Part shown: one piece after another, positions 12,655-16,571 of the stretch
Numbering within the stretch: position 1 is the first letter of the stretch
Layout of the letters: every line of letters begins with the position of its first letter
Source: a virus
Virus record (IMG/VR): IMGVR_UViG_3300003877_000001
Coordinates: 186,001 to 250,000 of that record
Reading direction: 5' to 3' (one strand)
Length of the DNA: 64,000 nt
The notes under the pieces: generated by a model
What the model was told of the DNA's origin: nothing
The model's database searches: none
The model's input: only the letters and a program-made list of their open reading frames with translations
Program-made: the position numbers and the translations under genes

Positions 12655-12789
12655 ATGATAATAGGATTAATAATATTACTACTACTATCAGGTAAGATAA
12701 TTCATAACCTAATTAAGATTGAAAGAATTCATATAAACATTAAATCAATCATGGAAGAAACTCAAAAAAAAATCAATAACTTTAAATAA
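12655..12789 (+). CDS. Small membrane protein, 44 aa
   Basis: N-terminal hydrophobic helix (MIIGLIILLLLSGKIIHNL) then an amphipathic charged tail. The junction-motif ATG and 4-nt gap to the next gene support it. Confidence 0.6.
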   Translation: MIIGLIILLLLSGKIIHNLIKIERIHINIKSIMEETQKKINNFK

Positions 12790-12793
12790 AAAT

Positions 12794-13177
12794 ATGACAA
12801 AACCAAATTTAAATATACCTAATCATACTGAAGAGTTAATGAACATCCTTACACTAAGTAAGAAGTCCTATGATAACTATTTATATGATAAGACCCTTGG
12901 ACATGTAACCTCAAGGAAACGTAAAACGTATAAGTATATCTTTGAGACTTATCTCTATGCAGTAGCTGATCTATCACTGAAAGTGAATGCTATCCAGAAA
13001 GACTTAGAGAACCACTACGCTAGGACGTACAAAGACTCACCAGCATTAGGTAATAAACTATACTATGAAGAGTACTTCGATCTACATAAAAAATATGATA
13101 AGGTGAAACGTTTCATCTGGAAAGCAATCTTTAAAATAGATGGAAACGAAAATATCCAACCAGATATTCTTATTTAA
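12794..13177 (+). CDS. Unknown helical protein, 127 aa
   Basis: Basic, Tyr-rich helical protein (SRKRKTYKYIFETYLYAVADL). It is the last gene of the rightward cluster, ended by a terminator. Function unknown. Confidence 0.7.
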   Translation: MTKPNLNIPNHTEELMNILTLSKKSYDNYLYDKTLGHVTSRKRKTYKYIFETYLYAVADLSLKVNAIQKDLENHYARTYKDSPALGNKLYYEEYFDLHKKYDKVKRFIWKAIFKIDGNENIQPDILI

Positions 13178-13202
13178 AAATATTATCTAGTGCGATCTAC
13201 CC

Positions 13203-13232
13203 AACCCCTTGCAGTTAATTTTGTAAGGGGTT
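13203..13232 (+). terminator. Terminator of the rightward cluster
   Basis: AACCCCTT (13203-13210) pairs with AAGGGGTT (13225-13232), followed by CTATTTG. Confidence 0.65.
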
Positions 13233-13239
13233 CTATTTG

Positions 13240-14250
13240 TCTACAATGTCCAACCTCATGATCACAATGTACATCATATTGTCCATGATAACATAGGATA
13301 GTCTTAACATTTCATTAACGAATCAATTCGTACCATATTGTATCATTATTAACACATTATTCTCCGCTAATGAAAAAACCCATAGGACATCCTACGGGTT
13401 TAATCATTCCAAACATGCAAGTACGTTTTCGTACAATACAAACATACAAATAAAAAAAGTCATAAGCAAGAGAAGATGGGATTATTATTTTTAACTAAGA
13501 ATGTTAATACTCGTTGCTTACGACTAAGAGTGGACACCTAAAAATAAATACCCACACATTTCAAAACAATCTTAATTAAGGATATTGCTAGGGACATTGA
13601 TGTCCCGAACACCACATTGTCCAATCCATTAGACAACCCACATTGTACACTCTCATAGGATAGCCTACATAGTAATTGCAATAACTATCATAGCAACCAG
13701 TGCTATATAAATTATTGCTTTTCCATAGGATGTCCTAATTTTAGTTCATCATATATAATACATATCCCATACCAAAAACGTAACTCGTTGTTCCTATGGA
13801 ACTTAACTTTAGGATGTCCTAAGTAATTCCCATTATTGGAAGTTCTTTGTCCCATAATGGGACAAGACATGACGAATTTCATGGTCTTAAATTATTAGAG
13901 AATCGGCTTCGGGCATTTCTACCCTTTGTTGAGAAGCAAGTAAATTATTATGTTTATTTAGGTTATCCTAGCCTGACATTTTTAATTAAGAATATATAAT
14001 TTTTTATAAAATCGAGTTTGAAATTTTATAAAAGAGATTTTTAGTACATGTAGCGACCCAAAAGTGGGTGAAAGTGGTAGGATGTGTTTAATTGTGGTGT
14101 AGAATTAAAAATTTTATGTTATTTTGTTGTTTTATTTATATTTAAATACTCTTTTTAGGATGTCCTAAAAGGAACAAAACAAAGGTGTTTTTAATAAAAA
14201 TGGAACATGAAAGAACCATAAAAGTACTACTTCATTTCTACATTAGTAGT
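13240..14250 (+). other. Non-coding, hairpin-rich region before the CRISPR array
   Basis: No ORF of note on either strand. Visible structure: AAACCC-A-TAGGA-CA-TCCTA-C-GGGTTT (13376-13401); a long-range stem AGTCATAAGCAAGAG (13458-13472) with CTCGTTGCTTACGACT (13510-13525); GGGACA-TTGA-TGTCCC (13591-13606); GTTCC-TAT-GGAAC (13790-13802); TTGTCCCA-TAA-TGGGACAA (13847-13865) overlapping AAGACATGA-TCATGGTCTT (13864-13888). At least six copies or near-copies of the AGGATnTCCT palindrome occur. It looks like one or more structured RNAs plus regulatory DNA. Strand is uncertain. Confidence 0.5.
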
Positions 14251-14270: not shown

Positions 14271-14693
14271 GTTGTGATCACCTTACAAAATGTGATAATA
14301 ACCAACCTTGTGCTCACGGTGATGTTTTATTTGACTTGTTGTGATCACCTTACAAAATATGATAATAACCAACAGAGTAGGTTTTATTTTGATAAGCAAG
14401 TAAGTTGTGATCACCTTACAAAATATGATAATAACCAACATATTCCTATTGTTATTATTGTTGTGATCACCTTACAAAATGTAATAATAACCAACCTATC
14501 TTATATACCAACATCTCTTGCCGAGGTTGTGACCACCTTACAAAATATAATAATAACCAACTCCAAGAGCCAACATTCGCAACCACGTACTGTTGTGATC
14601 ACCTTACAAAATATGATAATAACCAACGAGGATGTAGAGTTGGATTATTACCGCTTAGTTGTGATCACCTTACAAAATATGATAATAACCAAC
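14271..14693 (+). CRISPR. CRISPR array, 7 repeats of 36 nt, 6 spacers
   Basis: Repeats start at 14271, 14338, 14404, 14460, 14526, 14592 and 14658, each exactly 36 nt. They begin GTTGTGATCACC, continue TTACAAAATATGATAATA and end ACCAAC. Four copies are identical. Copy 1 differs at position 22, copy 4 at 22 and 24, copy 5 at 8 and 24. Spacers are 31, 30, 20, 30, 30 and 30 nt and all differ. The repeat has GTTG/CAAC ends and a GTGATCAC palindrome. An ORF that runs through the array is an artefact of the repeats. No cas1/cas2 is seen. The array lies 226 bp from the 3' end of a Cas12/TnpB-like gene on the other strand. Confidence 0.95.
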
Positions 14694-14742
14694 ATTATTA
14701 GAGATAAATCACTAATTATGAACAATTTATATTGTGAAATAA

Positions 14743-14780
14743 TATTATAAATTTGTAAGGTTCTACCCCATTATCATATT
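14743..14780 (+). ncRNA. Candidate tracrRNA anti-repeat segments
   Basis: Within 90 nt after the array, TTTGTAAGGT (14752-14761) and ATTATCATATT (14770-14780) are exact matches to two parts of the reverse complement of the CRISPR repeat; TATTAT at 14743-14748 extends the first with a gap. Type V-F and similar systems keep a tracrRNA between array and effector. The two blocks are in swapped order compared with the repeat, and the region is AT-rich, so chance matches are possible. Confidence 0.4.
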
Positions 14781-14919
14781 ATCAATCCATTTTCATGTTT
14801 CTAATACTAGAAGCTATATTTTACGTGGATATCACACTACCCAATCGTTAATTTATAATATTCAATAAGTTAAAGAACTTGTTATTACACTACAAATGTA
14901 GGTAAATAAATTGTAAATA

Positions 14920-16515
14920 TCAAGAGTTTATATATTTATTTTTAATATTAATTGCAGCATTAAAATCTGCATTATCTTCATGACCACATTTAGTACATTT
15001 AAAATTTGATTGATTAGTTCTATTATTAGAATCTATATTACCACAAACAGAACAAGTTTGTGAAGTATATGCAGGATCAATAAGAATTACTTCTTTACCA
15101 AGTTCTTTAGCTTTATATTCTAATTGGGTTTTAATTGTATTCCAACCAATATCTAGTATAACTCTATTAAAGTTCTGTTTAGATTTACTACCTTTAATAG
15201 TCATATTTTTTATATTAAGGTCTTCAAGAACAAAAGTATTATTATTTTTATTTTTGGTAAGTGTTGAAGTTATATTATGTTGTTTATTATTTCTAATATT
15301 AGAAATTTTAGTATTTATTATACCTAATTTATGTTTTATTCTTTTATATGAATTAGTTAAATAAAAATCTATATCTGTTTTATTTTTTTTATAATAGTCA
15401 TATTTTTTATTAAGTATAGTAGATAGTTTTCTTTTTTCTTCAGCATATTTTAATAGAACATCAAATCTATTTGCAAATATTGGATTATTAAAATCATTAA
15501 TATTTGAAGTTGTTATAGGTCTTTCAACACCTAAATCAATTCCAATGGTTGTTTTATCATTAGTGTGTTTAATTGAATAATTTTCAATATTGGTAATTAC
15601 CTGTATAGATATGAAGTATTGATCTTGCGAATTTTTAGATATAGTATAAGAATTTAATTTAAAAACATTAACATCATTCCACATATTAATAAACAATTTA
15701 TTATGACAAACCATTTTAATTTTTTTTAATTTAGGAATATTAATAGTAACGAATTTACTACCATTACTTATTATTTTAAATGGGGAAATATTACCATTAT
15801 AATTATATAGTATTTGACCAGTAAAAGAGTATGTTGAATTTCTATTTTTAAATTTAGGATAACCTGAATGTGTTTTCCATATTTTAGTAAAAGCATTATC
15901 TAAATTTTGTAATGTATATGATCTAGTAGTAGCATCAACATTTTTTAAGAATCCATATTTAAGGATACCATTTTCATTAAGTTCATTAGAGTTAGCCAAT
16001 ACAGTTAGTTCTTTAGATGCTTTATATTTATTAAAATATAAATCATTATCTTTCATATATTTTCTTCTAGCAACACCAATATCCTTAATTAAAGATTTAT
16101 AGTAGAGCATATGATCTATATCACCAGACTCATTAATATATTTAAAGAAAGAAACAATAAGAGTATCTTCAGTATCTAATTCTATTTTATATTTTTTTAA
16201 ATAGTTGTTAAACTCTTTAGAATCATTTAAATACTTATTTGTAAATTCATCTGAAATATCTTGTTGTTGTCTTAGAAAAGTATTATAGATAAAATTAGAG
16301 GTTCTAACAGCATCATCAAAGTATTGTATTTGTTTTTTATTAGGATAAATCCTAAACTTCAAAGCCTTATTTATTTTTTTTAGTTTAAATGATTTAATAT
16401 CATCTAATATAATATTATCATTTGTTAGAGAAGTTCCAATACCCTTTTTATTTACTTTGATAATATTGTGTATTGTGTTATTTTGTAAAGTAACAATATC
16501 ATTAGGTTGTAGCAT
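14920..16515 (-). CDS. Compact Cas12/TnpB-like RuvC nuclease, 531 aa
   Basis: An RNA-guided nuclease of the TnpB/Cas12 superfamily. Residues 51-85 (ALKFRIYPNKKQIQYF...NFIYNTFL) match the TnpB/OrfB N-terminal region. RuvC-I is IGIDLGVERPI with D327, RuvC-II is FVLEDLNI with E431, and RuvC-III is ADFNAAINI with D517. A Cys4 zinc ribbon (C488, C491, C507, C510) lies between II and III, so catalytic and zinc residues are intact. At 531 aa it is longer than usual TnpB (about 400) and in the range of compact Cas12f/V-U effectors. The first 46 residues are an extension I do not recognise. No IS200/IS605 transposase or element ends are seen, and a CRISPR array lies at its 3' side. This favours a phage-borne type V-like CRISPR effector over a transposon TnpB. 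The target type and guide RNA cannot be read from sequence. Confidence 0.88.
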   Translation of the reverse strand: MLQPNDIVTLQNNTIHNIIKVNKKGIGTSLTNDNIILDDIKSFKLKKINKALKFRIYPNKKQIQYFDDAVRTSNFIYNTFLRQQQDISDEFTNKYLNDSKEFNNYLKKYKIELDTEDTLIVSFFKYINESGDIDHMLYYKSLIKDIGVARRKYMKDNDLYFNKYKASKELTVLANSNELNENGILKYGFLKNVDATTRSYTLQNLDNAFTKIWKTHSGYPKFKNRNSTYSFTGQILYNYNGNISPFKIISNGSKFVTINIPKLKKIKMVCHNKLFINMWNDVNVFKLNSYTISKNSQDQYFISIQVITNIENYSIKHTNDKTTIGIDLGVERPITTSNINDFNNPIFANRFDVLLKYAEEKRKLSTILNKKYDYYKKNKTDIDFYLTNSYKRIKHKLGIINTKISNIRNNKQHNITSTLTKNKNNNTFVLEDLNIKNMTIKGSKSKQNFNRVILDIGWNTIKTQLEYKAKELGKEVILIDPAYTSQTCSVCGNIDSNNRTNQSNFKCTKCGHEDNADFNAAINIKNKYINS

Positions 16516-16540
16516 AAATATTTATTTAAAGATTAAAAGA

Positions 16541-16571
16541 CAAATATAGAAATATAAATTGATTAATGCAA
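16541..16571 (-). promoter_or_regulatory. Host-type promoter of the Cas12-like gene
   Basis: On the minus strand TTG, about 20 nt, then TATATTTG (16541-16548), 26 nt before the ATG. It is not a class B promoter, so the nuclease is probably made by host polymerase without the phage sigma. Confidence 0.5.

What the first reader, a model, noticed from the sequence alone, without database searches (positions are those of the whole stretch)
14271..16548. Phage-borne compact type V-like CRISPR locus
A seven-repeat array sits beside a 531-aa Cas12/TnpB-like nuclease with all three RuvC acids (D327, E431, D517) and a Cys4 zinc ribbon. There are no adaptation genes and no IS605 transposase. The first 46 residues of the nuclease are an extension not typical of TnpB. 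The locus lies at the convergent boundary of the two gene clusters. It may be a new small Cas12 lineage used against rival phages or plasmids.
Basis: partly seen in the sequence, partly recalled or inferred. Interest (0 to 1): 0.95.

Follow-up and report, generated by a model that had tools for sequence, protein, structure and literature searches.

The report
Compact type V CRISPR in jumbo phage
A very large bacterial virus carries a small stand-alone CRISPR unit (one TnpB-like nuclease, a probable helper RNA and a seven-repeat array), one more, quite divergent, case of a kind already known in giant phages, with no target yet identified.

Summary
Window 14271-14693 is a real CRISPR array: seven 36-nt repeats and spacers of 31, 30, 20, 30, 30 and 30 nt. 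It lies beside a 531-aa TnpB/Cas12f-family nuclease (14920-16515, minus) with an intact RuvC triad and Cys4 zinc site. The 325,854-bp record is a T4-like jumbo phage with no Cas1, TnpA or serine resolvase, and no other recognised Cas effector.

New here: the 226-nt gap between gene and array, read in the gene's direction, looks like a tracrRNA-array transcription unit: Bacteroidota-type promoter, boxA antitermination box, a hairpin whose loop pairs with the repeat's 3' end, and a 10-bp anti-repeat. Promoter plus boxA occurs once in the whole record. Other compact phage Cas12 loci share this layout, with boxA 140-254 nt ahead of the array (here 185); phage class 1 arrays have it at 69-90 nt. 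A covariance model of their tracrRNAs did not recognise this one, so homology is unproven.

The effector is a deep branch (at most 36% identity), unplaced between TnpB and a V-U3-like clade. About 50 independent TnpB-to-CRISPR captures are already recorded, phage cases included. No spacer target was found. New variant of a known kind.

The parts
16541..16571 (-). Promoter-like site of the effector gene: TTG (16571-16569), 20 nt, TATATTTG (16548-16541), matching the Bacteroidota sigma-ABfr consensus TTTG/TAnnTTTG
   Evidence: consensus in PMC7366714; 66 TTG-N19-21-TAnnTTTG sites on both strands of the record
14920..16515 (-). 531-aa TnpB/Cas12f-family effector; RuvC D327, E431, D517; zinc site C488, C491, C507, C510; N-terminal extension 2-45; REC-region insertion 91-149
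14893..14923 (-). Promoter-like site of the tracrRNA-array unit: TTG (14923-14921), 20 nt, TACATTTG (14900-14893)
14863..14880 (-). boxA-like antitermination box AAGTTCTTTAACTTATTG (core GTTCTTTAAC 14878-14869), 185 nt before the first repeat
   Evidence: TAnnTTTG followed within 5-30 nt by GTTCTTTRA occurs once in 325,854 bp on both strands, here; boxA upstream of CRISPR arrays in PMC7862264
14694..14892 (-). Candidate tracrRNA region between effector and array (ends inferred)
14826..14843 (-). Hairpin TGGGTA-GTGTGA-TATCCA; UGUGAU (14836-14831) is complementary to repeat 3' AUCACA (short repeat:anti-repeat)
   Evidence: 1 of 3000 shuffles and 3 of 5000 genome windows do as well (strict geometry)
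14752..14761 (-). Anti-repeat ACCTTACAAA, 10 nt complementary to repeat TTTGTAAGGT (long repeat:anti-repeat), at the same distance from the hairpin (89 nt) as in related loci (87-89)
14770..14780 (-). Second anti-repeat-like run AATATGATAAT, complementary to repeat ATTATCATATT; cannot pair at the same time as 14752-14761 without crossing it
14271..14693 (-). CRISPR array, 7 x 36-nt repeats; in gene sense GTTGGTTATTATCATATTTTGTAAGGTGATCACAAC; spacer nearest the leader is 14628-14657 (strand inferred from leader and anti-repeat)

Best explanation
A self-contained, tracrRNA-dependent compact type V CRISPR-Cas unit (V-F/V-U-like) whose effector derives from TnpB, carried by a T4-like jumbo phage of a probable Bacteroidota host. 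Proposed working: a host-type promoter drives the nuclease; a second promoter at its stop codon drives one non-coding transcript through boxA, tracrRNA and array. The tracrRNA pairs with each repeat by a long stem (ACCTTACAAA:TTTGTAAGGT) and a short hairpin-loop pseudoknot (UGUGAU:AUCACA), giving guides for RuvC cleavage of matching DNA. The array cannot grow on its own; new spacers would need host Cas1/Cas2 or recombination. Shown: array, protein family and catalytic residues, no other recognised Cas effector, promoter/boxA motifs, complementarities. Inferred: transcription, processing, cleavage, purpose (competing elements or host genes), host phylum.
For: Array and intact nuclease. No other recognised Cas effector in the phage, so the array has no other evident phage-encoded partner. 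Promoter+boxA composite unique in the record and exactly in the gap. Both promoters TTG-N20-TAnnTTTG. Hairpin-loop complement to the repeat end: 1/3000 shuffles, 3/5000 genome windows; the loop fits its own repeat (6 nt) but only 3 nt of the TACAAC tails of most relatives, while the L133 loop follows its own CACAAC tail. Two anti-repeat runs covering different repeat parts: 0/1500 genome windows. Hairpin-to-ACCTT spacing 89 nt against 87-89 in L130, L123 and L139. boxA-to-array spacing 185 nt falls in the 140-254 range of compact Cas12/TnpB-type loci, not the 69-90 of phage class 1 arrays. Same gene-gap-array order in L094, L112, L114, L139. The short plus long repeat:anti-repeat plan is that of Cas12f1 (PMC11246509). 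Fold: TnpB ISFba1 TMt 0.78, ISDra2 TnpB 0.75, AsCas12f 0.64.
Against: A covariance model from seven related tracrRNAs does not find this one (11.5 bits, E 0.4, wrong register) although it finds held-out relatives at 52-79 bits. Whole-duplex energy of gap and repeat is no better than shuffles (183/500), and the folded precursor has z 0.10. The loop pairing is shifted two bases from the others. No spacer target, so no protospacer or PAM. Hairpin and boxA were noticed before being tested, so the p values are post hoc. One locus, no close relative.
Confidence: 0.7

Rival explanations
1. The array is an orphan of a class 1 (type I-like) system working in trans, from the host or a co-infecting phage, and the TnpB-like gene only happens to lie beside it.
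For: The repeat is 29/36 identical, including the last eight bases ATCACAAC, to the repeat of a phage-borne Cas3/Cas7/Cas6 system (L115; similar arrays in L120 and L122). Viral mini-arrays that use host Cas proteins are known (PMC11656645).
Against: boxA-to-array distance 185 nt against 69-90 in those class 1 arrays, leaving room for a tracrRNA; those arrays show no loop-matched hairpin. The base after AAGG is T as in most of the type V loci, not G/A as in the class 1 ones. No bacterial genome of 84,980 species matches the shared repeat pattern, so no host system with it is known. No Cas6/Cas7/Cas3 homologue seen in this phage. The array has six spacers, not one or two.
Confidence: 0.12
2. An ordinary phage-borne TnpB (relict of an IS200/IS605 or IS607 element) that uses an omega-RNA at its 3' end, with an unrelated array next to it.
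For: The fold is closest to TnpB; guided_TnpB is the best NCBIfam family; the effector may sit on the TnpB side of the tree. TnpB-like genes are common in phages: 510 of 50,697 records match.
Against: No TnpA and no resolvase in the record. The array begins 226 nt after the gene, on a promoter+boxA unit unique in the genome. An N-terminal extension and a 59-aa REC-region insertion are absent from most TnpBs. The repeat is complementary to separate parts of the gap. Element ends were not searched systematically.
Confidence: 0.12
3. The effector binds but does not primarily cleave: a guide-directed silencer of host or phage genes, as for Cas12m.
For: Other phage loci found here pair similar arrays with Cas12f-like proteins that appear to lack RuvC residues (L121, L127, L128).
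Against: All three RuvC acids and the zinc ribbon are intact here.
Confidence: 0.06

Closest known systems
Type V-F / V-U compact Cas12 (Cas12f1, V-U3, V-U4)
   Same: Size, RuvC plus TNB zinc ribbon, tracrRNA-type short and long repeat:anti-repeat plan, array beside the gene, no adaptation genes
   Different: Best PADLOC score only 134.6 bits (Cas12u4) against 277-315 bits of phage V-U3 proteins to their own model; Cas12f2 cut-off 450 not met (94); extra N-terminal and REC pieces; tracrRNA not found by a model of related ones
TnpB of IS200/IS605 elements (ISFba1, ISDra2)
   Same: Best fold match (TMt 0.75-0.78), guided_TnpB family, roughly 28-36% identity to phage TnpBs
   Different: No TnpA; CRISPR array and split guide instead of an omega-RNA; 531 aa with two extra segments
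LaTranC and other TnpB-Cas12 intermediates
   Same: From general knowledge: TnpB-like effector with a separate tracrRNA and array; Foldseek match 9jfq TMt 0.61
   Different: Low sequence similarity (phmmer about 1e-08 over the C-terminal part); the defining paper was not held, so no further comparison
Phage TnpB plus array on IMGVR_UViG_3300028888_000045 (L094, 334,687 bp)
   Same: Gene, gap of about 226 nt, 36-nt repeats on the same strand, repeat 3' part AAGGTnnnnACAAC
   Different: 30% identity, no N-terminal extension, no boxA and no loop-matched hairpin found in its gap

Membership tests
CRISPR array | Near-identical repeats of 23-48 nt with unrelated spacers of similar length | tested here: met
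   7 x 36 nt, spacers 30-31 nt except one of 20
Type V CRISPR-Cas | Single RuvC effector with intact D-E-D triad next to an array | tested here: met
Type V CRISPR-Cas | Array RNA bound by the effector and guiding interference | not testable with these tools
   needs RNA work and biochemistry
Subtype V-F (Cas12f) / V-U3 | Effector falls within the subtype | tested here: inconclusive
   Highest PADLOC score is Cas12u4 134.6 bits, Cas12f 123.5, Cas12u3 94.2; tree places it between V-U3 and TnpB, 93/64 support
Subtype V-F (Cas12f) / V-U3 | tracrRNA with short pseudoknot and long repeat:anti-repeat stems | tested here: inconclusive
   Complementarities found and rarer than chance, spacing as in relatives, but covariance model negative
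NCBIfam CRISPR_Cas12f2 / C2c8 | Score over the curated cut-off | tested here: not met
   94 of 450 and 83.8 of 350 bits
IS200/IS605 or IS607 transposon TnpB | TnpA (Y1) or serine resolvase partner | tested here: not met
   No PF01797 or PF00239 in the record; TnpB-only elements exist, so this alone does not exclude an IS relic
IS200/IS605 or IS607 transposon TnpB | Recognisable element ends | not tested
   No systematic search of ends; no relative with an empty site was found
TnpB protein family (guided_TnpB) | Score over the curated cut-off | tested here: met
   213 bits, cut-off 100
Autonomous adaptive CRISPR system | Cas1/Cas2 | tested here: not met
   No Cas1 in the record; Cas2 not searched on its own
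Class 1 mini-array | Repeat identical to a host CRISPR system | tested here: not met
   No genome among 84,980 species matches the shared pattern; the real host is unknown
CasPhi / CasLambda | Sequence or close fold relative | tested here: not met
   CasPhi-2 phmmer E 0.038; CasLambda TMt 0.35

The most novel reading that the evidence does not exclude
A separate, phage-confined type V subtype: a TnpB that became a CRISPR effector inside jumbo phages of Bacteroidota, gained a REC insertion, and took over (or evolved in parallel) the promoter-boxA-tracrRNA-array cassette used by unrelated phage Cas12 effectors, so that guide-RNA cassette and nuclease evolve as exchangeable modules.
Probability: 0.3. 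Interest if true: 0.6.

Novelty: new variant of a known kind. Interest (0 to 1): 0.45.

Why it matters
It adds a divergent effector to the set of TnpB-to-Cas12 transitions and gives a concrete, testable guide-RNA design. The layout of host-type promoter, boxA, tracrRNA and array, found across several phage loci, suggests that giant phages carry a standard expression cassette for CRISPR guides that is adapted to host Nus factors. If active, the nuclease is small enough to interest genome engineers.

Tried and rejected
Close relatives in viral contigs by protein, full repeat and repeat core: none. Repeat pattern in bacterial genomes: none. Closest TnpBs in viral and bacterial genomes: about 23-38% identity over the aligned part; among the viral ones only L094 has an array directly beside the gene, and among the bacterial ones a repeat detector gave hits in two loci that I did not examine. 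Rfam: nothing above threshold. Spacer matches: phages and plasmids, own record, leader-proximal spacer's 20-nt seed in viral contigs, 396 Bacteroidota genomes: nothing convincing. Synteny of the flanking rIIA gene for an empty site: no relative found. Plain folding of the precursor and duplex energy: not significant. Covariance model of related tracrRNAs: does not detect this one. CasPhi, CasLambda and Cas12a-e kinship rejected on score.

Full report
Observation. The array at 14271-14693 has seven 36-nt repeats, four identical and three with one or two changes, and spacers of 31, 30, 20, 30, 30 and 30 nt. The repeat occurs only here in the 325,854-bp record that holds the window. The neighbouring ORF, 14920-16515 on the minus strand, is 531 aa. 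D327, E431 and D517 are invariant in 30 aligned viral relatives, as are three of the four zinc cysteines; C488 is shared by 29. Pfam, NCBIfam, PADLOC and PHROGs all place it in the TnpB/Cas12f superfamily. The record is a T4-like jumbo phage (rIIA, rIIB, tail sheath, portal, RNA ligase, nicotinamide phosphoribosyl transferase). It has no Cas1, Y1 transposase or serine resolvase. Among its 193 ORFs of 160 aa or more, the effector is the only one that a PADLOC scan assigned to a CRISPR effector family; only the first 25 of 44 families of the second half were listed.

Effector. Relatives are at most 36% identical; BLAST hits in phages, viral contigs and bacterial genomes are about 23-33%, up to 38% over short stretches. 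Trees leave it as a long branch between a TnpB clade and a V-U3-like clade, unresolved. The AlphaFold model (pLDDT 77, pTM 0.73) matches TnpB ISFba1 (TMt 0.78) and ISDra2 (0.75) better than AsCas12f (0.64). Residues 2-45 and 91-149 are absent from most of the TnpBs. The first piece has very low confidence; the second is partly helical and lies in the REC region. REC insertions are what Cas12f and Cas12m gained over TnpB (PMC10097598), so this is suggestive but not a test. A promoter-like TTG-N20-TATATTTG (16571-16541) ends 25 nt before the ATG, which supports the annotated start.

Gap between gene and array. Read in the gene's direction it carries, in order: TTG-N20-TACATTTG, matching the sigma-ABfr consensus TTTG/TAnnTTTG (PMC7366714); a boxA-like AAGTTCTTTAACTTATTG; a 6-bp hairpin with a 6-nt loop; two anti-repeat runs; then the array. 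TAnnTTTG followed within 5-30 nt by GTTCTTTRA occurs once in the record on both strands, at this place. boxA elements upstream of CRISPR arrays are known, e.g. GTTCTTTAAAA in Legionella (PMC7862264). The loop-region run UGUGAU is complementary to AUCACA near the repeat's 3' end; with strict geometry 1 of 3000 shuffles and 3 of 5000 genome windows do as well, with loose geometry 2 of 3000 and 28 of 5000. ACCTTACAAA is complementary to repeat TTTGTAAGGT, and AATATGATAAT to ATTATCATATT; two such runs covering different parts of the repeat were found in 0 of 1500 genome windows. These two cross and cannot both form a simple duplex; the ACCTT one is in the register used by related loci. Cas12f1 guides have a long stem and a pseudoknot with a 5-7-bp short stem (PMC11246509), and a pseudoknot before the guide is shared by TnpB and Cas12 RNAs (PMC10097598).

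Comparative evidence. A repeat-based scan (GTTG-N18-AAGG-N6-CAAC twice) found 30 viral stretches. Several sit beside V-U3-like Cas12 genes (L119 and L139 at 277-315 bits to Cas12u3; also L114, L133, L132 by sequence), two kinds beside TnpB- or Cas14c-like genes (L094, L112), and one kind beside a class 1 Cas3-Cas7-Cas6 cluster (L115; similar ORFs in L120). In loci with compact effectors or the V-type hairpin, boxA, where found, lies 140-254 nt before the array; in the class 1 arrays 69-90 nt; here 185. Most V-U3-like loci have a 6-bp hairpin with loop GUUGUA or GUUGUG matching their own UACAAC or CACAAC repeat end, L121 being an exception; the window's loop matches its own, different, repeat end. 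Distance from the hairpin block to ACCTT is 87-89 nt in L130, L123 and L139, and 89 here.

Negative tests. A covariance model built from seven related tracrRNAs finds held-out L119, L137, L135 and L127 at 52-79 bits and L121/L128 at 23-27 bits (several of these are close to training sequences). It does not find the window's RNA (best 11.5 bits, E 0.4, in a wrong register). So the window's tracrRNA is either much diverged or arrived at the same plan separately; I do not claim homology. Whole-duplex energy and single-strand folding are no better than shuffles. No spacer match was found in the record itself, 50,697 phages and 72,556 plasmids, viral contigs for the 20-nt seed of the leader-proximal spacer, or 396 Bacteroidota genomes (best E 4e-4 per genome over 396 genomes, spanning repeat and spacer, so not a protospacer).

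Rival by repeat kinship. The repeat is 29/36 identical to that of L115's class 1 system. I weigh this as the main rival. Against it: the boxA spacing, the missing loop-matched hairpin in those arrays, the T after AAGG shared with most type V loci, and the absence of detectable Cas6/Cas7/Cas3 homologues from this phage. The shared repeat shape may reflect exchange of arrays between phage systems.

Placement. About 50 independent associations of TnpB with CRISPR have been inferred and more are expected (PMC12669027); jumbo and other phages with V-U or TnpB genes beside arrays are described (PMC12607003). This locus fits that kind. It is not a demonstrated member of any named subtype, and its function against rivals is an inference from the general roles of viral CRISPR (PMC11656645).

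Noticed in passing
L115 (2913-8266), L120 (634-3767), L122 array 12746-13571: A phage-borne class 1 CRISPR system with Cas3, Cas7fv-like and Cas6b proteins (domains scanned in L115 only), on contigs up to 597 kb; its repeats are about 75-81% identical to the window's, and the shared pattern was not found in 84,980 bacterial and archaeal genomes.
   Followed up: partly
L121 9240-10334, L127 12979-14035, L128 5579-6700: Cas12f-like proteins beside arrays that appear to lack the usual RuvC-I motif and zinc ribbon: possibly inactivated, binding-only effectors (L127 is cut by the locus end).
   Followed up: no
L139, L123, L135, L112 upstream of first full repeat: The tracrRNA is followed by a half repeat and a spacer, which would make a natural single guide RNA ahead of the array, possibly a relic of an omega-RNA.
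   Followed up: partly
window 13809, 14155, also 5964 and 7813: Palindrome-like TTAGGATGTCCTAA occurs five times in the phage, twice in the non-coding stretch left of the array; possibly an operator or promoter element.
   Followed up: no
L094 7986-8955: Serine-recombinase-like ORF and a truncated TnpB C-terminus about 2.7 kb downstream of the TnpB-plus-array locus, resembling an IS607 relic.
   Followed up: no
window 13203-13401: Two terminator-like hairpins facing each other at the boundary of the + and - gene clusters.
   Followed up: no
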